Below are positions 26,760 through 62,902 of a DNA stretch of 64,000 nucleotides, piece after piece (within the stretch, counting starts at the first letter, position 1; each line of letters begins with the position of its first letter). Below the pieces are notes generated by a model. That model saw nothing but the letters and a program-made list of their open reading frames with translations, was not told the DNA's origin and made no database searches. Made by a program: the position numbers and the translations under genes. This DNA is from Pseudorhodoferax sp. Leaf274 (GTDB lineage Bacteria; Pseudomonadota; Gammaproteobacteria; Burkholderiales; Burkholderiaceae_C), in the NCBI RefSeq assembly GCF_001422445.1, contig NZ_LMNA01000001.1, positions 288,932-352,931 on the forward strand. The letters are read 5' to 3'.

Positions 26760-27224
26760 GTGCTGCACTGGCCCGACGAGGCCGCCACGGCCGCCTTTGC
26801 CGCGCGCCTGGCCGCGCAGCCGACGGTGGTGGACGCCTTCATCACGCTGCACGGCGACCTGGGAGCGGGCAAGACCACGCTGGTGCGCCACCTGCTGCGC
26901 GCGCTGGGCGTGCAGGGCCGCATCAAGAGCCCGACCTATGCCGTGGTGGAGCCGCACGCGGTCGACGGCTGCGTGCCGCCACTGTCGATCTGGCACTTCG
27001 ACTTCTACCGCTTCGACGATCCGCGCGAGTGGGAGGACGCGGGCTTTCGCGACATCTTCGCCAGCGGCGGACTGAAGCTGGCCGAATGGCCCGAGAAGGC
27101 CGGCGCGCTGCTGCCGCCGGCGGACCTGGCGGTCACGATCACGGCGCAGGCCGATGAAGGCCGCGCGGTGCGGATCGCGGCCCACACGCCACGCGGGCGT
27201 GCGCTACTGGAGAACCTGAGATGA
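26760..27224 (+). CDS. tsaE: TsaE, ATPase of tRNA t6A37 synthesis
   Basis: TsaE works with TsaB and TsaD to make threonylcarbamoyladenosine in ANN-decoding tRNAs. Walker A GDLGAGKTT is followed by SPTYAVVE, HFDFYRF and LAEWPEKAG, all family hallmarks. The start is uncertain: GTG at 26760 gives 154 residues but has no Shine-Dalgarno, and the frame is open upstream to near 26664, where GGAGAG precedes a CTG at 26670. Its stop overlaps an ATG (ATGA) opening the mini-ORF before amiC. Confidence 0.9.
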   Translation: MLHWPDEAATAAFAARLAAQPTVVDAFITLHGDLGAGKTTLVRHLLRALGVQGRIKSPTYAVVEPHAVDGCVPPLSIWHFDFYRFDDPREWEDAGFRDIFASGGLKLAEWPEKAGALLPPADLAVTITAQADEGRAVRIAAHTPRGRALLENLR

Positions 27225-27298
27225 ACACCCCCACGCCCATCGCCGCCCCGTTGCAGGGCGCATCGGCGCCTTCGGGCAGCCGGGCGCTGCCGACATGA
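27221..27298 (+). CDS. Bridging mini-ORF between tsaE and amiC (25 codons)
   Basis: The ATG overlaps the tsaE stop (ATGA) and is preceded by GGAG at 8 bases, a good ribosome-binding site. Its TGA overlaps the amiC ATG (ATGA). amiC itself has no Shine-Dalgarno. The peptide shares IAAP-x2-GASAPSG-x-RA with the mini-ORF before mutL, and the DNA core 27256-27289 matches 32482-32518 at about 31 of 34 aligned bases. A coupling role is inference. Confidence 0.5.
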   Translation: MNTPTPIAAPLQGASAPSGSRALPT

Positions 27299-28722
27299 AA
27301 CGCCGCCGCCTGCTCGGCCATGGCGCGCTGGTGCTGCTGCTGGGCGTGACCCATGCGGCGCGCGGCGCCGGCATCGTGGCCGTGCGCGTCTGGCCCGCGC
27401 CGGACTATTCGCGCGTGACCATCGAATCCGATGTGCCGCTGACCACCAAGCAGATCTTCGTGTCCGATCCGCCGCGGCTGGCCGTCGACATCGAGGGCAT
27501 CGACCTGGATGCAGCGCTGCGCGAACTGGTGGGCCGGGTGCGCCCGGACGACCCCAACATCGAGCGCATCCGCGTCGGCCAGAACCAGCCCGGCGTGGTG
27601 CGGCTCGTGATCGACCTCAAGCGCCGGGCCGTGCCCCAGGTGTTCACGCTCAAGCCGGTCGCGGCCTACCAGAACCGCCTGGTGCTCGACCTGTACCCGG
27701 CCGAGGCGGAAGACCCGCTGCAGGCCCTCATCACCGAGCGGCTGCGCGATGTGGACGCCGGCAAGGCACCCGCCGCCGACCCGCTGGACGACCTGATCGC
27801 ACGCCACACCGGCCCCGGCAGCACCAGCGGCCCGGAGCTGCGCGAATCGCCGCCGCCCGGGCGGGTGTTGCCCCTGCCCGGCCCGGACAGCACGGCGCGC
27901 CCGGCATCGCCCGAACTGCCGCACGGCACGCTGGCCGCCGCGCCCGACAAGGCCCCGCCGCGCCCGGCCAAGGCGCCCGCGCCACCGCCCAGCCGCACCG
28001 ACCGCCTCATCATCGTGGCGCTGGACCCGGGACACGGCGGCGAGGACCCCGGCGCCATCGGCCCCAAGGGCACGCGCGAGAAGGACATCGTGCTGCGCGT
28101 GGCGCACAAGCTGCGCGAGCGCATCAACGTGGCCAGCGTCAACGGCAACCCGATGCGCGCCTTTCTCACGCGCGACGCCGATTTCTTCGTGCCGCTGCAG
28201 ACGCGCGTGCAGAAGGCCCGCAACGTGCAGGCCGACCTGTTCATCAGCATCCATGCCGACGCGTTCACCACGCCGGCCGCGCGCGGCGCCAGCGTGTTCG
28301 CGCTGAGCCAACGCGGCGCCACCAGCACGGCCGCGCGCTGGCTGGCCGACAAGGAGAACCAGGCCGACCTGATCGGCGGCGTCAACGTGCAGGCCAAGGA
28401 CCAGCACGTGCAGCGCATGCTGCTGGACATGAGCACCACCGCGCAGATCAACGACAGCCTGAAGCTGGGCAGCGCGGTGCTGGGCGAGATCGGCGGCATG
28501 GCCCGTCTGCACAAGCCGCGCGTGGAGCAGGCGGGCTTTGCGGTGCTGAAGGCGCCCGACATCCCCAGCGTGCTGGTGGAGACGGCCTTCATCAGCAACC
28601 CCGAGGAAGAGGCCCGCCTGCGCAGCGATGCCTACCAGGACGACCTGGCCGAAGCCATCATGCGCGGCATCCGCGCTTACTTCGCCAAGAACCCGCCGCT
28701 GGCGCGCAACCGCACGGTCTGA
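27295..28722 (+). CDS. amiC: N-acetylmuramoyl-L-alanine amidase, AmiC type
   Basis: This periplasmic zinc amidase cleaves septal peptidoglycan during daughter-cell separation. The 475-residue precursor has a signal sequence (KRRRLLGHGALVLLLGVTHAARG), an AMIN domain (about 26-150) for septal targeting, a Pro/Ala-rich linker, and an Amidase_3 domain (about 240-468) with zinc-site motifs DPGHGGEDPGA, SIHADAF and LVETAFISN. The Arg-rich signal start fits Tat or Sec export. In relatives it lies in tsaE-amiC-mutL order; here 3.8 kb separate it from mutL. Confidence 0.95.
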   Translation: MKRRRLLGHGALVLLLGVTHAARGAGIVAVRVWPAPDYSRVTIESDVPLTTKQIFVSDPPRLAVDIEGIDLDAALRELVGRVRPDDPNIERIRVGQNQPGVVRLVIDLKRRAVPQVFTLKPVAAYQNRLVLDLYPAEAEDPLQALITERLRDVDAGKAPAADPLDDLIARHTGPGSTSGPELRESPPPGRVLPLPGPDSTARPASPELPHGTLAAAPDKAPPRPAKAPAPPPSRTDRLIIVALDPGHGGEDPGAIGPKGTREKDIVLRVAHKLRERINVASVNGNPMRAFLTRDADFFVPLQTRVQKARNVQADLFISIHADAFTTPAARGASVFALSQRGATSTAARWLADKENQADLIGGVNVQAKDQHVQRMLLDMSTTAQINDSLKLGSAVLGEIGGMARLHKPRVEQAGFAVLKAPDIPSVLVETAFISNPEEEARLRSDAYQDDLAEAIMRGIRAYFAKNPPLARNRTV

Positions 28723-28840
28723 GCGGCCCTACGCCCGACGCCGGCCGCGGCCTACAGGTGTGCCGCAGGCCCGTGCCTACAGTCATGCCACGGGCCCGCG
28801 GACAACGGGCCTGCCACCACAACAGCACGACGAGGTACAC

Positions 28841-29062
28841 ATGATCAAGACCATCCTGGCCACCACGGCCGCTGCCGTCATCGGCCTGACGGGCTGCGCA
28901 TCCAACCCCAGCGGCGCCCAGGTCGGCACCGGTGTCGGCGCCGTGGCGGGCGGCGTCGTCGGCAACGCTGTGTTCGGCAGCACGCTGGGCACGGTTGGCG
29001 GCGCGGCAGCCGGCGCGCTGGTCGGCAACGAAGTCGGCAAGCGGCGCGACCAGGGCCGCTGA
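28841..29062 (+). CDS. Small glycine-zipper outer-membrane lipoprotein
   Basis: The 73-residue product has a lipoprotein signal with lipobox LTGC (Cys19) and a glycine-zipper segment (GTGVGAVAGGVVGNAV, then GGAAAGALVGNEVGK). Such proteins insert in the outer membrane and resemble SlyB/OsmB-type stress lipoproteins. GAGG lies 6-10 bases before the ATG. It ends before a bidirectional terminator and begins the block inserted between amiC and mutL. Confidence 0.85.
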   Translation: MIKTILATTAAAVIGLTGCASNPSGAQVGTGVGAVAGGVVGNAVFGSTLGTVGGAAAGALVGNEVGKRRDQGR

Positions 29063-29100
29063 GCCACCGGGCCGGGTTCCGCCGTGGACCCCCCACCGAC

Positions 29101-29120
29101 AAGGGCCCTGCGGGGCCCTT
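29101..29120. terminator. Bidirectional intrinsic terminator
   Basis: AAGGGCCC-tgcg-GGGCCCTT is a perfect 8-base stem with a tetraloop, flanked by T-rich bases on the plus strand. It lies 39 bases after the glycine-zipper gene and 32 bases after the convergent small exported gene. Confidence 0.8.
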
Positions 29121-29151
29121 CGTCATTCACGGTGCCGTTGCGCCGCGTCGT

Positions 29152-29403
29152 TCAGGAACCTTCCTGCGGCAGCTTGGCGGACTGGCACTGGATGGCACCG
29201 GCCGCCATGTGGCAGGCGATCGCCCGCCCGGTGGCGGGATCGTGGAACCAGGCCGTGCTGCCACTGCCACTGGACGACACGCCCACCGGCTGGAAACTGG
29301 GGTTGGCGCGGATCTGCGACTGGGCACTGGGCACCATGGTGACCCCCAGTGCGAGGACGGACACCACGGCCAAAGCGATGGCGGGAATGCGGAAACGGGA
29401 CAT
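29152..29403 (-). CDS. Small exported protein of unknown function
   Basis: The 83-residue product starts at an ATG with an ideal Shine-Dalgarno (AAGGAG, 6 bases upstream). It has a signal sequence (MSRFRIPAIALAVVSVLALG, cleavage probably after PSAQS), then a short mature part of about 50 residues. The mature part has a Ser/Gly run, a WFHDPATGRAIACHMAAGAIQCQ stretch and two cysteines that could form a disulfide. I do not recognise the family. Confidence 0.7.
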   Translation of the reverse strand: MSRFRIPAIALAVVSVLALGVTMVPSAQSQIRANPSFQPVGVSSSGSGSTAWFHDPATGRAIACHMAAGAIQCQSAKLPQEGS

Positions 29404-29494
29404 GCAGAGCTCCTTCGGGCCAAAAGCCGCATCATCCCGCAGCGCCGGCGCGCCGGGCGTGACGAGCCGTGTCCGCCGCGTGGTCAGGGCCCGG

Positions 29495-30163
29495 TCAAGG
29501 CGTGGCGGCGCCCGCTGCATCGCGCTCGGCCTGGCGCTTGGCCTTCCAGGCGCCATAGATCGCGATCAGGCCGGGGATGAAGATCATGGCCCAGATGATC
29601 TTGTCCAGGTTGGCCTTGACCCACGGCAGGCCGCCCAGGAAGTAGCCGGCCGTGCAGATGCCCAGCACCCAGATCAGCGCGCCGGCCACGTTGTAGGCCG
29701 TGAACTTGGTGCGGCTCATCTCGGCCACGCCGGCCACGAAGGGCGCGAAGGTGCGGATGAACGGCATGAAGCGCGCCAGGATGATGGTCACGCCGCCGTA
29801 GCGCTCGTAGAACGCATGGGCCTGGTTGAACGCCTTCTTGTTGAAGAAGCGCGAATCCTCCCACTGGAACACCTTGGGCCCGAAATAGCGGCCGATGCTG
29901 TAGTTGCACTGGTCGCCCAGGATGGCCGCCGCGATCAGCACGGCCATGGCGATCGGCAGGCTCATGAGGCCCAGCCCGCACAGCGCGCCGACCACGAACA
30001 GCAGCGAATCGCCGGGCAGGAACGGCATGACCACCACGCCGGTCTCGACGAACACGATCAGGAACAGCAACGCATAGACCCAGGTGCCGTAGTTGCGCAC
30101 GAAGGCCTCCAGGTGGCTGTCCACGTGCAGGATGAAGTCGATCAGAAAGCTCACCAGTTCCAT
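29495..30163 (-). CDS. DedA-family membrane protein
   Basis: The 222-residue protein has the DedA/VTT pattern: PFLPGDSLLFVVGAL near 47-61, GDQCNYSIGRYFGPKVF, then a re-entrant region RFMPFIRTFAPFVAG. DedA proteins move lipids or help keep membrane potential and can affect cationic-peptide resistance. It lies within the block between amiC and mutL and is divergent from the first zinc-ribbon gene. Confidence 0.95.
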   Translation of the reverse strand: MELVSFLIDFILHVDSHLEAFVRNYGTWVYALLFLIVFVETGVVVMPFLPGDSLLFVVGALCGLGLMSLPIAMAVLIAAAILGDQCNYSIGRYFGPKVFQWEDSRFFNKKAFNQAHAFYERYGGVTIILARFMPFIRTFAPFVAGVAEMSRTKFTAYNVAGALIWVLGICTAGYFLGGLPWVKANLDKIIWAMIFIPGLIAIYGAWKAKRQAERDAAGAATP

Positions 30164-30327
30164 GGCGCGGCATTATGGCGGCCCACCCTGGCCCGGCACA
30201 TGACAGGCCGCCGCGCCAGGGGATTTGCGCGGCAACGCATTTGCTAGCATCGGCCCGCCCTGGCGCACGCCGGCCGCGGCCAGCGCCGCCGGCGCACCGC
30301 GGCGCCCCTCCATCCCGCTGTTTCCAT

Positions 30328-31314
30328 TTGTCCAAGACCTGCCCCGCATGCGGCACCGGCAACCGGCCCATCGCCAGGTTCTGCAGGAAGTGCGCAACGC
30401 CGCTGGAGCCGACCGCCCCCGCGGCCGGTGCCGCCGTGCGCGCTGCGCCCCTCGCCCCGCAGCCGGCCGCCCGCACCGCCTGCGCGGCGTGCGGCAAGCC
30501 CAACCGGGCCGGCGCGCGCTTTTGCCGCAGCTGCGGCAAGGCCATCGGTGCGGCAGCCCAGGCGGCCACCGTGCCTGCCGTGTCCACGGAGTCCGTGGCC
30601 CGCCACGCGCCCGTGGCGCCCAGGCTGGTCCAGGCCGACCGGCAGCGCGACATCCCGGCGCCGCGCCCGGACGCGACGCCCGACGGACAACCGGACCGCA
30701 CGCCAGCCGCGGCCGCACCGCCGCGGCATCGCCCCGTCACCCCGTGGCTGCTGCTGGTGCTGGTGCTCGTGGCGGCGTTCCTGTGGTGGCAGCGCGACCC
30801 TGCGCCAGCACCCGCGCCCGCCGCGCCGCCCGCGGCCGAGCCGGTGGAAGAGTTCCTGACCGAGCCGCGCCCCCTGCCACCCGAGACCCCAACCGAGATC
30901 CCGCCCGCCCAGCCCGAAGCGCCAGCGGCCGAGCCACCGGCAACGCCCGCGGCCTCCGGGCCGGCCCCGGCGCCCGCCCCCACGCCCGAACGCGCCCGGC
31001 CGCAGCCCGCGCCTGCCCTGCCGGCGGCCAGCGCCGCCCAGGCCGCCCCCACGCCGCCGGCCGCGCCCGCCGCCGTCTACACTGCGCCCCCGCCCGCCAG
31101 CCCGCAGCCGCCGCCACAGCCGCCGCGCAAGGCCGCTGCCGCGCCCAGCCCGGAGACCGTCTGCGCCGACAGCACCGGGCTCGGCCGCTCGCTGTGCATC
31201 GGCGTGCAGTGCTTCAAATCCGAATTCCGCCGGCACCCGACCTGCGTGCGGCTGGAAAATGAGGCCCGCGAGCGCCGCCAGCGCGAAATAGACCAGGGCC
31301 TGGTCGGCGGCTAG
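30328..31314 (+). CDS. Double zinc-ribbon, single-span membrane protein of unknown function
   Basis: The protein carries two zinc ribbons at its N-terminus (CPACG...FCRKC at about 5-22, and CAACG...FCRSC at about 56-73) and one membrane helix (PWLLLVLVLVAAFLWW, about 148-163). A Pro/Ala-rich stretch of about 130 residues follows, then a short C-terminal domain with four cysteines (VCADSTGLGRSLCIGVQCF, TCVRLE). The ribbons would be cytoplasmic and the tail periplasmic. The TTG start is uncertain: no Shine-Dalgarno is visible and the frame is open to 30175. It precedes another zinc-ribbon membrane gene by 38 bases. The function is unknown. Confidence 0.7.
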   Translation: MSKTCPACGTGNRPIARFCRKCATPLEPTAPAAGAAVRAAPLAPQPAARTACAACGKPNRAGARFCRSCGKAIGAAAQAATVPAVSTESVARHAPVAPRLVQADRQRDIPAPRPDATPDGQPDRTPAAAAPPRHRPVTPWLLLVLVLVAAFLWWQRDPAPAPAPAAPPAAEPVEEFLTEPRPLPPETPTEIPPAQPEAPAAEPPATPAASGPAPAPAPTPERARPQPAPALPAASAAQAAPTPPAAPAAVYTAPPPASPQPPPQPPRKAAAAPSPETVCADSTGLGRSLCIGVQCFKSEFRRHPTCVRLENEARERRQREIDQGLVGG

Positions 31315-31352
31315 CCGGCCGCGCCGCAGCAACCACCAGGAGAATCCACCCC

Positions 31353-32438
31353 GTGCTTTCCCAACAAGTCAAGGACAGCAGCAGCCTCGTCGACAGCATC
31401 GACGCCATGCGCAACTGGCGCGCCCTCGTGCTGCTGCTGGTGACCCTGGTCGCTGGCGCCGTGGTCATGGGCCTGGGCACGCTGCTGGCCGGGGTCAGCT
31501 ATGTGTTCGTCGCGCTGTTCGCCGTGGCCGCCTACACCGTGCTGTTCTATGGCTTCAACGCCGCCGGCGTGATGCTGATGGACGAGGCCCATGGCCAGCG
31601 CTCGCGCTCCATCGTCGACGCGGTCGTGCATTCGCTGACCCATTCGCACCGCCTGCTGCTGGTCTACCTGTGGATCGCCGGCCTGTACCTGGCGGGCGTG
31701 CTGCTGCTGGTGGTGGTGCTGTTCGTGTGCAAGCTGCCGCTGCTGGGGCCGTTGCTGTATGCCTTCGTCTTCCCGGTGGCCGTGGTGCTGACCGGCGTAG
31801 CGCTGTTCGCCTTGCCGATGGTGGTGTTCCCGCTGTCGGCCCCGTCGGTCTGGAACGGGGCGACGGCGATGGAATGCATGAGCCAGCTGATCGCCATCGC
31901 GCGCCGCCGGCTCGGCATGGTGCTGCTGCTGATGCTGGTGGTGTCCTTCATCGCCGGCCTCATCGGGCTGCTGATCGGCACCATCCTGTTCGGCGGCGTG
32001 GCCATCACGGCCGGGCTGTCGGCGCCCATCGTGGGCAACATGGACATGGGCAGCTTCGGCATGGGCAGCGGCGGCGCGCACGCGGCTGCGGCAGGCTTCG
32101 GCAGCGGCGTGCTGTTCGCCGCCGCCTTCACGCTGCCGGGCCTGGTCTACCTGCGCGGCGTGAGCGCCGTCTACCTGCGCGCGCTGGACGGGCTGGACCT
32201 GGCCGCCGAGCAGGCCCATGTGGATGCCCACCTGGCCTATGCCGTCGACAAGGCGCGCGGCATGCAGGAGCAGGCCCAGGCGCGCGCCCAGCGCGTGGCC
32301 GAGCGCGCCCGCGCCGCGGCCGCCAGTGCCGCGCAGCCCGCCGAGCCGCCGCGCCCGCCAGCCACATGCCCCAACTGCGGCACCAACGTGCGTGCCAGCG
32401 ACACCCAGTGCGCCGCCTGCGGCCATCCGCTGAAATGA
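31353..32438 (+). CDS. Multi-span membrane protein with C-terminal zinc ribbon
   Basis: The 361-residue protein starts at GTG with AGGAG 10 bases upstream. It has about five to six hydrophobic segments (24-50, 52-75, 103-128, 132-158, 190-215 and 245-262) and a Gly/Met-rich loop (MDMGSFGMGSGG). An Ala/Arg-rich helical stretch follows, and the protein ends in a zinc ribbon (CPNCG...CAACG). Its stop overlaps the ATG of the mini-ORF before mutL. With its neighbour it forms a zinc-ribbon membrane pair inserted in the amiC-mutL interval. The function is unknown. Confidence 0.82.
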   Translation: MLSQQVKDSSSLVDSIDAMRNWRALVLLLVTLVAGAVVMGLGTLLAGVSYVFVALFAVAAYTVLFYGFNAAGVMLMDEAHGQRSRSIVDAVVHSLTHSHRLLLVYLWIAGLYLAGVLLLVVVLFVCKLPLLGPLLYAFVFPVAVVLTGVALFALPMVVFPLSAPSVWNGATAMECMSQLIAIARRRLGMVLLLMLVVSFIAGLIGLLIGTILFGGVAITAGLSAPIVGNMDMGSFGMGSGGAHAAAAGFGSGVLFAAAFTLPGLVYLRGVSAVYLRALDGLDLAAEQAHVDAHLAYAVDKARGMQEQAQARAQRVAERARAAAASAAQPAEPPRPPATCPNCGTNVRASDTQCAACGHPLK

Positions 32439-32524
32439 CGCCCCCCACGCTCATCACTTCGTGTATCGCTGCCCCCCGAGGGGGCGCTTCAGCGCCTTCG
32501 GGCGGCCGGGCGGCGCTGAAATGA
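32435..32524 (+). CDS. Bridging mini-ORF before mutL (29 codons)
   Basis: The ATG overlaps the stop of the zinc-ribbon gene (ATGA) and the TGA overlaps the mutL ATG (ATGA). It contains a hairpin-forming GCCCCCCGAGGGGGC and the core shared with the tsaE/amiC spacer. The peptide has IAAP-x2-GASAPSG-x-RA in the same frame as the other copy. mutL has no Shine-Dalgarno, so ribosomes arriving through this frame could start mutL. This is inference from layout. Confidence 0.5.
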   Translation: MTPPTLITSCIAAPRGGASAPSGGRAALK

Positions 32525-34434
32525 GCACCGAACGCCGCCAGATCCGCGAACTGCCCGACGAGCTGATCAGCCAGATCGCCGCGGGCGAGGTGGTCGAGCG
32601 CCCGGCCTCGGTGGTGCGCGAGCTGGTCGACAACGCGCTGGACGCCGGCGCGCGCCAAGTGGTGCTGCGCCTGCTCGCCGGCGGCGTGCGCCTGATCGCC
32701 GTGGAGGACGACGGCACCGGCATTCCCATGGCCGACCTGCCGCTCGCACTCAAGCGCCATGCCACGAGCAAGATCGGCAACCTGCAGGAACTCGAGAGCG
32801 TGGCCACCATGGGCTTTCGCGGCGAGGCGCTGGCGGCGATCAATTCGGTGTCCGACATGGCGATCGCCTCGCGCACCGCGGAGCAGCCGCACGCCATGCT
32901 GCTGGACGGGCGCACCGGCGAGATGAAGCCGGTGGCGCGCGCCGTCGGCACCACGGTGGAGGTCAAGGAACTGTTCTTCAGCACGCCGGCGCGGCGCAAG
33001 TTCCTCAAGACCGACGCGACCGAGCTGGCCCACTGCATCGAGGCCGTGCGCCGCCACGCGCTGGCGCGGCCCGACGTGGGCTTTGCCATCTGGCACGAGG
33101 GCAAGCTCGTCGAGCAGTGGCGCGCCGCGCCCGACAGCGACGACGCCGGCATGGACCAGCGCCTGGCCGACGTGCTGGGCGAGGACTTCTGCGAGCGCTC
33201 GGTGCTGGTGGACTACCGCAGCAGCGCGCAGTCCGAAGCCGGCGGCCCGCTGATCCGCGTGCGTGGCCGTGCCGGCATCCCGGACGCGGCACGCGCGCGC
33301 GGCGACCACCAGTTCGCCTACGTCAACGGCCGCTTCGTGCGCGACAAGGTGCTCGCGCACGGCGCGCGCAGCGCCTACGAGGACGTGCTGCACGGCCAGC
33401 GCCAGCCGGTCTACGCGCTCTACGTGGACATGGACCCCACCCGGGTGGACGTGAACGTGCACCCGACCAAGATCGAGGTGCGCTTTCGCGACAGCCGCGA
33501 GGTGCACCAGGCCGTGCGCCGCGCCATCGACCAGGCGCTGGCAACGCCGCGCGCCGCGCTGGCCCAGACCGCGCCGCAGCTGCCCCTGCCGGTGCCGGCC
33601 ACGGTGGTGCCGCCGTGGCAGCAGCCGTCGATGGCCTTTGCCGAGCGCGCACCGGCCGCCGATTTCACGCCCTGGAGCCCGGCCCCCGCCTCCCGCGTGG
33701 CCGAGCCGGCCCCGCGCTGGGCACCCGATTTCGCTGCAGATACCGGAGCCGAAGCCGAAGCCACCACCGTCCTGGCCGAGCGCACCACCGACGGCGTCCG
33801 TGCCCCGCCCGCGCCGGTGGCGGTGCAGCCCGCGCCGGCAGACATGCCGGCCTGGCCGCTGGGCCGCGCACTGGCGCAGCTGCAGGGCATCTACATCCTG
33901 GCCGAGAACCAGCAGGGCCTGGTGGTTGTGGACATGCATGCCGCGCACGAACGCATCGTGTACGAACGGCTCAAGGCCCAGGCGGATGACGCCGCCATGG
34001 CGAGCCAGCCACTGCTGATCCCCGCCACCTTCGCCGCCACGCCGACCGAGCTGGCCACCGCCGAGGCCCATGCCGAGACACTGTCCACGCTGGGCCTGGA
34101 CGTCGCGCCGTTCTCGGCCCGCACGCTGGCCGTGCGCGCCGTGCCGGCCAGCCTGGCCCAGGGCGACGCCGTGGCCCTGGCCCGCAGCGTGCTGGCCGAG
34201 CTGGCCCAGCACGACGCCAGCGGCGTGGTCGAGCGCGCCCGCAACGAATTGCTGGCGACCATGGCCTGCCACGGCGCAGTGCGCGCCAACCGCCGGCTGA
34301 CGCTGGAGGAGATGAACGGCCTCTTGCGCCAGATGGAGGCCACCGAGCGCTCCGACCAGTGCAACCACGGCCGGCCGACCTGGCGCCAGATCAGCGTGCG
34401 GGAACTCGACCAGCTGTTCCTGCGGGGGAGATGA
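32521..34434 (+). CDS. mutL: MutL, DNA mismatch-repair protein
   Basis: MutL links mismatch recognition by MutS to strand removal. The 637-residue protein has the GHKL ATPase N-terminus (ELVDNALDAGA, DDGTGIP, KRHATSKI, GFRGEAL), the transducer domain to about 335, a Pro/Ala-rich linker, and the dimerisation domain. The C-terminus carries DMHAAHERIVYE, CNHGRP and a terminal FLR, close to the metal-binding motifs of endonuclease-type MutL and unlike E. coli MutL. It is separated from amiC and miaA, its usual neighbours, by inserted genes. Confidence 0.97.
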   Translation: MSTERRQIRELPDELISQIAAGEVVERPASVVRELVDNALDAGARQVVLRLLAGGVRLIAVEDDGTGIPMADLPLALKRHATSKIGNLQELESVATMGFRGEALAAINSVSDMAIASRTAEQPHAMLLDGRTGEMKPVARAVGTTVEVKELFFSTPARRKFLKTDATELAHCIEAVRRHALARPDVGFAIWHEGKLVEQWRAAPDSDDAGMDQRLADVLGEDFCERSVLVDYRSSAQSEAGGPLIRVRGRAGIPDAARARGDHQFAYVNGRFVRDKVLAHGARSAYEDVLHGQRQPVYALYVDMDPTRVDVNVHPTKIEVRFRDSREVHQAVRRAIDQALATPRAALAQTAPQLPLPVPATVVPPWQQPSMAFAERAPAADFTPWSPAPASRVAEPAPRWAPDFAADTGAEAEATTVLAERTTDGVRAPPAPVAVQPAPADMPAWPLGRALAQLQGIYILAENQQGLVVVDMHAAHERIVYERLKAQADDAAMASQPLLIPATFAATPTELATAEAHAETLSTLGLDVAPFSARTLAVRAVPASLAQGDAVALARSVLAELAQHDASGVVERARNELLATMACHGAVRANRRLTLEEMNGLLRQMEATERSDQCNHGRPTWRQISVRELDQLFLRGR

Positions 34435-43291: not shown

Positions 43292-46347
<3,056 letters not shown>

Positions 46348-58708: not shown

Positions 58709-62902
<4,194 letters not shown>

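What the first reader, a model, noticed from the sequence alone, without database searches (positions are those of the whole stretch)
27221..32524. Repeated in-frame mini-ORF spacer that overlaps both flanking genes (before amiC and before mutL)
Seen: two spacers, 27221-27298 and 32435-32524, each open with an ATG overlapping the upstream stop (ATGA) and close with a TGA overlapping the downstream ATG (ATGA). The DNA cores 27256-27289 and 32482-32518 match at about 31 of 34 aligned bases with a 3-base gap. Both peptides contain IAAP-x2-GASAPSG-x-RA, so the repeat is kept in frame. amiC and mutL both lack a Shine-Dalgarno. Inference: the spacer acts as a translational bridge that carries ribosomes from one gene to the next across a gap, possibly as a dispersed family across the genome.
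Basis: partly seen in the sequence, partly recalled or inferred. Interest (0 to 1): 0.8.

Follow-up and report, generated by a model that had tools for sequence, protein, structure and literature searches.

The report
Start-codon repeat carrying ribosome-relay mini-genes
A short hairpin-rich DNA repeat sits on the start codons of dozens of genes in this bacterium and its relatives, and nearly every such copy examined carries a tiny reading frame that begins at or near the previous stop codon and ends on the next start codon, apparently handing ribosomes across the insertion.

Summary
Both belong to a dispersed family of ~85-nt, three-hairpin repeats: 63 matches at E<=1.6e-4 in the own genome (probably Pseudorhodoferax), 30-37 in each of 5 congeners, present in 23 of 30 genomes of other genera in the family. 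Of 134 units examined in own genome and congeners, 98 lie tightly between co-directional genes in sense orientation. Of 107 such units (9 from other genera), 99 carry a mini-ORF from near the upstream stop to within -3..+4 nt of the downstream start; 5 are in-frame N-terminal extensions. Shifted frames give 14 bridges and 55 fusions of 198. All three element frames are used and related mini-ORFs show no third-position excess, so the ribosome path, not the peptide, looks conserved. Sister genomes have empty sites where the amiC and mutL junctions are bare ATGA overlaps. Best reading: insertion at a start codon, which is duplicated; the mini-ORF takes over initiation and delivers ribosomes by termination-reinitiation. 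This is the architecture reported for mycobacterial MIRUs; the sequence is probably the betaproteobacterial repeat BRE, which had no function. Translation was not measured.

The parts
26760..27224 (+). tsaE, upstream gene of copy 1 (start position from the script's gene finder)
   Evidence: PF02367 E 4.2e-34, TIGR00150 over cut-off
27221..27298 (+). mini-ORF 1 (25 codons + stop): ATG overlaps the tsaE stop, TGA overlaps the amiC start
   Evidence: ortholog with a longer element in G004; empty ATGA sites in G002, G003, G005
27228..27294 (+). element copy 1, about 12 nt shorter inside than the family consensus (by eye); start-to-start 74 nt against 83 in the G004 ortholog, a difference of 9
   Evidence: lengths; CM match 51.0 bits
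27261..27294 (+). 3' hairpin of copy 1: arm CATCGGCGC, inner stem-loop, arm CTGCCGAC directly before the amiC ATG
   Evidence: sequence; arm pairing tested across copies
27295..28722 (+). amiC-like amidase gene, downstream of copy 1
   Evidence: PF01520 and PF11741
31353..32438 (+). gene upstream of copy 2 (hydrophobic protein with a marginal C-terminal zinc ribbon)
   Evidence: PF13248 26.2 bits against a cut-off of 27, PF13240 25.1 against 25
32435..32524 (+). mini-ORF 2 (29 codons + stop): ATG overlaps the upstream stop, TGA overlaps the mutL start
   Evidence: same arrangement in G003, G004, G005; empty ATGA site in G002
32442..32520 (+). element copy 2, full length, best own-genome match of the model
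   Evidence: 106.5 bits, E 5.4e-18; the copy is itself one of the 28 in the model
32455..32463 (+). hairpin 1 of copy 2 (CAC-TTC-GTG)
   Evidence: one of its three pairs is GC in 17 and AU in 9 of 28 copies
32471..32485 (+). hairpin 2 of copy 2 (GCCCCCCGAGGGGGC)
   Evidence: 92.9% of cells paired; little covariation
32488..32520 (+). hairpin 3 of copy 2, outer arms TTCAGCGC / GCGCTGAA, ending directly before the mutL ATG
   Evidence: 9 of 14 pairs with changes on both sides
32521..34434 (+). mutL, downstream of copy 2
   Evidence: NF000949 and TIGR00585 over cut-off, PF08676, PF01119

Best explanation
The two spacers are copies of a dispersed, hairpin-forming repeat that becomes inserted at gene start codons. 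The element now has a start codon on both sides (shown), and sister genomes without it have one start, at the two window junctions overlapping the upstream stop (shown). The 5' ATG would keep the original initiation site and opens a mini-ORF of 25-37 codons through the element (longer in a tandem); its stop overlaps or abuts the 3' ATG, the start of the gene (shown as sequence). Ribosomes that translate the mini-ORF would open the 3' hairpin, stop on the duplicated start and re-initiate there (inferred from termination-reinitiation in other organisms). Insertions that do not keep this path are lost, because an 80-nt gap would cut the gene off from its ribosomes (inferred). The peptide is a by-product. 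A minority of copies solve the same problem by in-frame fusion, as N-terminal extensions.
For: Phase: 99 of 107 tight sense units bridge (93 ATG, 5 GTG, 1 TTG starts), stop end relative to gene start only -3, -2, -1, +1 or +4; 5 fused; 1 read by eye as a two-step relay through a tandem pair. Same starts shifted by 1 or 2 nt: 14 bridges, 55 fusions of 198, so bridge plus fusion is 104 of 107 against 69 of 198. 105 units form 74 junction groups with several frame/stop combinations. Antisense units, own genome and genus: 9 bridge, 9 fused, 1 other of 19; shifted 1 and 8 of 38. Empty sites: mutL junction in G002, amiC junction in G002, G003, G005 are bare ATGA overlaps. The two start regions of a copy share more sequence than swapped pairs (run 5.15 against 4.52, above all 2000 shuffles). 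GGAG/GAGG/AGGA before 26 of 99 mini-ORF starts, 7 of 99 gene starts. Substitutions at codon positions 1/2/3: mini-ORF 71/73/56, downstream gene 25/21/112 in 29 same-frame pairs; 103/112/89 and 111/81/188 in all 39 pairs. Covariation: 67 cells changed on both sides against 19.3 shuffled. Both exceptions fit: L277, without a bridge, has GGAG before its gene start; in L305 the upstream frame runs through the element and ends on the gene's ATGA. Coupling nearly vanishes at gaps of about 20 nt in six tested pairs (PMC10666635, abstract).
Against: No translation or expression data. Copies are related, so phase is partly inherited: 31 of 74 groups share one frame/stop class. Gene starts come from my own gene finder; a few were checked by eye. 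The model was trained on 28 sense copies of the own genome, and only 80 of about 171 congener matches, the top-scoring ones, were examined. Fusions alone are common by chance (55 of 198 shifted frames). At rpoN and yaeQ the sister empty sites are gaps of 3-19 nt, not ATGA. L332, at a gene start, has no start codon for a mini-ORF; of 7 looser sense units 4 bridge and 3 do not. Accessibility differs weakly between the two starts (0.44 against 0.37 unpaired, 43 of 66). A duplex-energy Shine-Dalgarno test favoured the gene starts (-5.77 against -3.77), perhaps because the element's own G-rich stretch lies there. In other genera 9 of 42 units are tight sense.
Confidence: 0.8

Rival explanations
1. 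An ordinary dispersed palindromic repeat that lands anywhere; mini-ORFs are an accident of a G+C-rich, stop-poor sequence between close genes.
For: High G+C; in-frame fusions occur in 55 of 198 shifted frames; copies exist inside ORFs and in intergenic regions, mainly in other genera; BRE is described as usually intergenic.
Against: Mini-ORFs end on the downstream start in 99 of 107 units against 14 of 198 shifted frames. Length changes between orthologs keep phase (74 and 83 nt, 98 and 110 nt); the one pair of lengths that differ by 2 (87 and 85, L266 and L240) differs after the stop codon. In 4 of 6 bridges that lack an ATG, a GTG or TTG overlaps the upstream stop.
Confidence: 0.06
2. The mini-ORFs are small genes whose peptide is functional.
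For: The two window copies share IAAPxxGASAPSGxRA.
Against: Element frames 0, 1 and 2 are used 62, 25 and 12 times; no third-position excess; no Pfam hit for the two peptides.
Confidence: 0.03
3. The element is a regulatory RNA structure (hairpin hiding the start, attenuator or stabiliser) and the open frame only keeps upstream translation from blocking it.
For: Three hairpins, the third with strong covariation; the third ends at the start codon and its inner arm pairs with the sequence next to that start (5.26 of 7 variable pairs against 3.64 with arms swapped).
Against: Does not explain why the frame ends on the start codon; in the two window copies no run of T follows the hairpin; no relevant Rfam match in 27000-32700.
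Confidence: 0.08

Closest known systems
MIRU (mycobacterial interspersed repetitive units), as described in PMC12548453 (passages seen) and PMC2734929 (passages seen)
   Same: Short dispersed repeat (40-100 bp), apparently mobile, inserted at start codons, with an internal ORF coupled to the gene at a -4 spacing; tandem copies.
   Different: Different phylum; no sequence comparison made. Here: three hairpins with covariation, spacings of -1 and +1 type besides ATGA, GTG/TTG starts, both orientations, in-frame fusions. Whether MIRUs do these too was not checked.
BRE, Beta-proteobacterial repeat element (PMC3110155, section 14 read and passages)
   Same: About 75-91 bp, G+C-rich, tandem arrays, some copies overlapping ORF ends or inside ORFs, in Comamonadaceae and other Betaproteobacteria.
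   Different: Its sequence is not in the text held, so identity was not shown; the section read reports no link to start codons, phase or coupling and declines to suggest a function.
Rickettsia palindromic elements (PMC10969869, passages seen)
   Same: Small palindromic repeats carrying an ORF, inserted in frame.
   Different: Those described lie inside genes and encode a conserved peptide; here 98 of 134 own and congener units lie tightly between genes and the peptide varies.
Termination-reinitiation at overlapping gene pairs (PMC10666635 abstract; PMC6728339 start of abstract)
   Same: ATGA and TGATG junctions and short spacings.
   Different: Known for gene pairs; here a repeat supplies an intermediate ORF.

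Membership tests
MIRU-like start-codon element (works like) | Copies sit at gene start codons | tested here: met
   98 of 134 own and congener units are tight sense junctions (34 of 56 own, 64 of 78 genus); of 7 divergent-context units 6 have a gene start at their end. Other genera: 9 of 42 tight sense
MIRU-like start-codon element (works like) | ORF in the repeat coupled to the gene at -4 spacing | tested here: met
   Sequence arrangement only: 40 of 99 bridges end as ATGA (+4), the rest at -3 to +1; coupling itself not measured
MIRU proper | Sequence homology with mycobacterial MIRUs | not tested
   No mycobacterial sequence was fetched; not filed as a member
BRE | 75-91 bp repeat, tandem arrays with few bases between, G+C-rich, Betaproteobacteria | tested here: met
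   86-position model, arrays of 2-4 copies, G+C 0.62-0.85 per match, 44 of 399 genomes of the order positive
BRE | Sequence identity with the Bordetella BRE | not testable with these tools
   No consensus in the passages seen; supplements not available
BRE | Copies beside lexA, as in three Bordetella species of the paper | tested here: inconclusive
   No match in 9 LexA-family loci of 8 unnamed order genomes, none known to be Bordetella
Rfam RNA families | Match to a curated family | tested here: not met
   One weak unrelated hit in 27000-32700
REP/RAYT palindromes | 20-40 bp palindromes with a tagged end (PMC3733652, start of abstract) and a RAYT transposase (recalled) | not tested
   Length differs; tag and transposase not searched

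The most novel reading that the evidence does not exclude
BRE-type repeats are a mobile family that targets start codons, the inner arm of the 3' hairpin being either copied from or recognising the target: across 73 junction groups the arm is complementary to the sequence next to that gene's start at 5.26 of 7 variable positions against 3.64 with arms swapped, in some copies including the start codon (L279, L099, L100, L020, L331). This would be a MIRU-like ribosome-relay element evolved independently in Betaproteobacteria, with hairpin-coded target choice.
Probability: 0.25. Interest if true: 0.85.

Novelty: new variant of a known kind. Interest (0 to 1): 0.62.

Why it matters
It gives a testable role (ribosome relay) to a repeat family probably identical with one reported without function, and about a hundred natural constructs on which the rules of termination-reinitiation (overlap, spacing, hairpins, start codon) can be read. 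It shows how a repeat can sit at the start of genes such as mutL, rpoN and yaeQ while leaving their reading frames and starts intact. It is apparently a second case beside mycobacterial MIRUs. It also warns annotators: gene starts and N-terminal extensions at such sites are easily miscalled.

Tried and rejected
Rfam: nothing relevant. Paper searches by context and by core letters found no functional account of this repeat in the open-access library; searches returned no paper at all, so this is a limited search. BRE was found through; its full name occurs in one held paper. MIRU surfaced. lexA test of BRE identity: inconclusive. Duplex-energy Shine-Dalgarno test went against expectation (-3.77 at mini-ORF starts, -5.77 at gene starts); judged confounded, both results reported; a looser motif that includes GGGG gave 27 and 12 of 99. 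RNA accessibility: weak difference. Peptide selection: rejected; one search had mixed in pairs from one group of six that joins different genes, so repeats it without that group and within one frame. Regulatory RNA as main role: kept as a rival.

Dropped before counts: of 65 own matches two duplicates and one weak match (33.8 bits); of 81 genus matches one weak (30.9 bits); of 50 family matches two duplicates. One of four tandem copies on contig C4 was not returned, so that array counts as two units; one of them was left out of the antisense count (19 of 20 units). Own-genome matches weaker than E 1.6e-4 (26 of 89) were not examined. In one search one gene start (L134) was moved to an upstream in-frame ATG at the element's end.
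Full report
What was seen. The flanking genes are tsaE and an amiC-like amidase gene for the first, and a gene for a hydrophobic protein with a marginal zinc ribbon and mutL for the second.

Not two spacers but a family. blastn with the second spacer finds 44 places in the own genome; with the first, 40 at E<=1, few of them strong. From 28 sense copies I built a covariance model with three hairpins. 91.6% of cells are paired against 80.3% in shuffles and 38-52% when partners are slid; 67 cells have changes on both sides against 19.3 in shuffles, most of it in the third hairpin. The model finds 89 places at E<=0.1 in the own genome, 63 at E<=1.6e-4. Among 59 relatives: 5 of 5 congeners (30-37 matches each), 23 of 30 genomes from other genera of the family, 1 of 24 elsewhere in the order (E<=0.01). 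In a wider draw 44 of 399 genomes of the order, own included, had a match at E<=1e-5 (stricter filters). The nearest named MutL is from Pseudorhodoferax aquiterrae (88%), which carries the element directly before both amiC and mutL, so the window is probably a Pseudorhodoferax; this is an inference, as records very near the window may be left out of that search.

Where the copies lie. I fetched 9, 17 and 96 stretches besides loci returned by searches, and classed 190 matches (176 units after merging tandem copies) with a codon-usage gene finder trained on the window. Own genome, 56 units: 34 tight between co-directional genes in sense orientation, 13 antisense to co-directional genes, 6 inside ORFs, 3 others. 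Genus sample, 78 units: 64 tight sense, 3 loose sense, 7 antisense, 4 others; these are the top-scoring 80 of about 171 matches, and the model was trained on sense copies. Other genera, 42 units: 9 tight sense, the rest intergenic, looser or within called ORFs; calls there are shaky because the gene finder was trained on 70% G+C.

Phase. For 107 tight sense units I asked whether an ORF beginning near the upstream stop ends near the downstream start. 99 do: 93 from ATG, 5 from GTG, 1 from TTG. The stop ends at -3 (6), -2 (1), -1 (42), +1 (10) or +4 (40) relative to the gene start, and 45 of 99 mini-ORF starts overlap the upstream stop by four bases. Five are open into the gene in frame. L099 is a tandem pair that reads, by eye, as two mini-ORFs in series, each handing over at an ATGA. 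Two remain: L277 lacks a bridge but has GGAG before its gene start, and in L305 the upstream frame runs through the element and ends on the gene's ATGA. Shifting the starts by one or two bases gives 14 bridges and 55 in-frame fusions of 198; fusions are thus common by chance and bridges are not. Antisense units: of 19 in own genome and genus, 9 bridge, 9 fuse, 1 neither; shifted frames give 1 bridge and 8 fusions of 38. Of 4 antisense units in other genera 3 do neither. Grouping by downstream gene leaves 74 junction groups, of which 31 share one frame/stop class and 43 do not (one group of six joins different genes). The groups are not fully independent, but start-to-start lengths from 74 to 110 nt (175 in a tandem) and all three element frames (62, 25, 12) keep the outcome.

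Not only bridges between genes. L014, classed as convergent because its downstream ORF of 214 codons was missed, also bridges. The common denominator is the start codon.

Empty sites. At the mutL junction G002 has a bare ATGA overlap and G000, G003, G004, G005 are occupied; G001 has 186 nt between its called upstream stop and mutL. At the amiC junction G002, G003 and G005 are bare ATGA overlaps and G000 and G004 are occupied (the G005 stop was read by eye). At rpoN and yaeQ only G000 of six genomes of the genus is occupied and the others have 3-19 nt between stop and start, so the target need not be an overlap. Sequence around the two starts of a copy is more alike than in swapped pairs (run of 5.15 against 4.52 bases, none of 2000 shuffles as high, 66 groups), as expected if the target is duplicated; in the mutL copy the run is CGCTGAAATGA.

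What is conserved. In 29 same-frame pairs of related copies, substitutions in the mini-ORF fall 71/73/56 on codon positions 1/2/3, in the downstream gene 25/21/112 (103/112/89 and 111/81/188 in all 39 pairs). The peptide is not under visible selection; start, stop and frame are. GGAG-like motifs precede 26 of 99 mini-ORF starts and 7 of 99 gene starts; an energy-based version went the other way and is probably confounded. For amiC, GGAG in the tsaE 3' end stands before the mini-ORF start (sequence).

Mechanism. Shown: family, structure, position, phase, empty sites, lack of peptide conservation. Inferred: that the mini-ORF is translated, that its ribosomes re-initiate on the gene, and that out-of-phase insertions were lost. 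The inference rests on termination-reinitiation elsewhere: in six gene pairs of E. [quoted passage not shown] the review PMC12548453 (passages seen) also cites studies with less dependence on distance. The same review describes this architecture for mycobacterial MIRUs. So the kind is known; this is apparently a second case, in Betaproteobacteria, with a sequence that is probably BRE (PMC3110155, section 14 read), for which that section declines to suggest a function. BRE identity could not be tested; the lexA test was inconclusive.

An open point. The inner arm of the 3' hairpin pairs with the sequence next to the gene start: 5.26 of 7 variable pairs against 3.64 when arms are swapped (sd 0.12, 73 groups; for the 34 groups without CTGA in the outer arm 5.24 against 3.04). 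In L279, L099, L100, L020 and L331 the outer arm includes the start codon itself. Either the element brings its own start codon, or the arm reflects target choice, or selection restores pairing. This was not resolved.

Noticed in passing
L099 (own genome C2:204750-204920): Two tandem copies read as two mini-ORFs in series, each handing over at an ATGA, before a gene that itself begins ATGAGAAA.
   Followed up: partly
L026 (own genome C12:36914-37165): Three tandem 84-bp copies lie antisense inside a called open reading frame of 838 codons, 252 bp in all, a multiple of three.
   Followed up: partly
L102, L224, L280 and other antisense copies: Antisense copies at gene starts open with ATGAGCGCC/ATGAGCGAC, which reads as a recurring N-terminal start (MSAAPGRPKQ-like); it may appear in annotated proteins as a real or artefactual N terminus.
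   Followed up: partly
L462 (G011) and L464 (G014), upstream of rpoN: In two other genera repeat copies also stand directly before rpoN: antisense tandem copies in G011, sense copies in G014 ending about 10 nt before the start (by eye). Phase not tested.
   Followed up: no
window 44102-45605 and 60602-62147: Long direct repeats (71-87% identity) about 16.5 kb apart, probably paralogous signalling genes.
   Followed up: no
L007 2403-2488 (own genome C1:361833-361918): A second, diverged copy about 0.9 kb downstream of another copy, so both junctions of one gene are occupied; it bridges too.
   Followed up: partly
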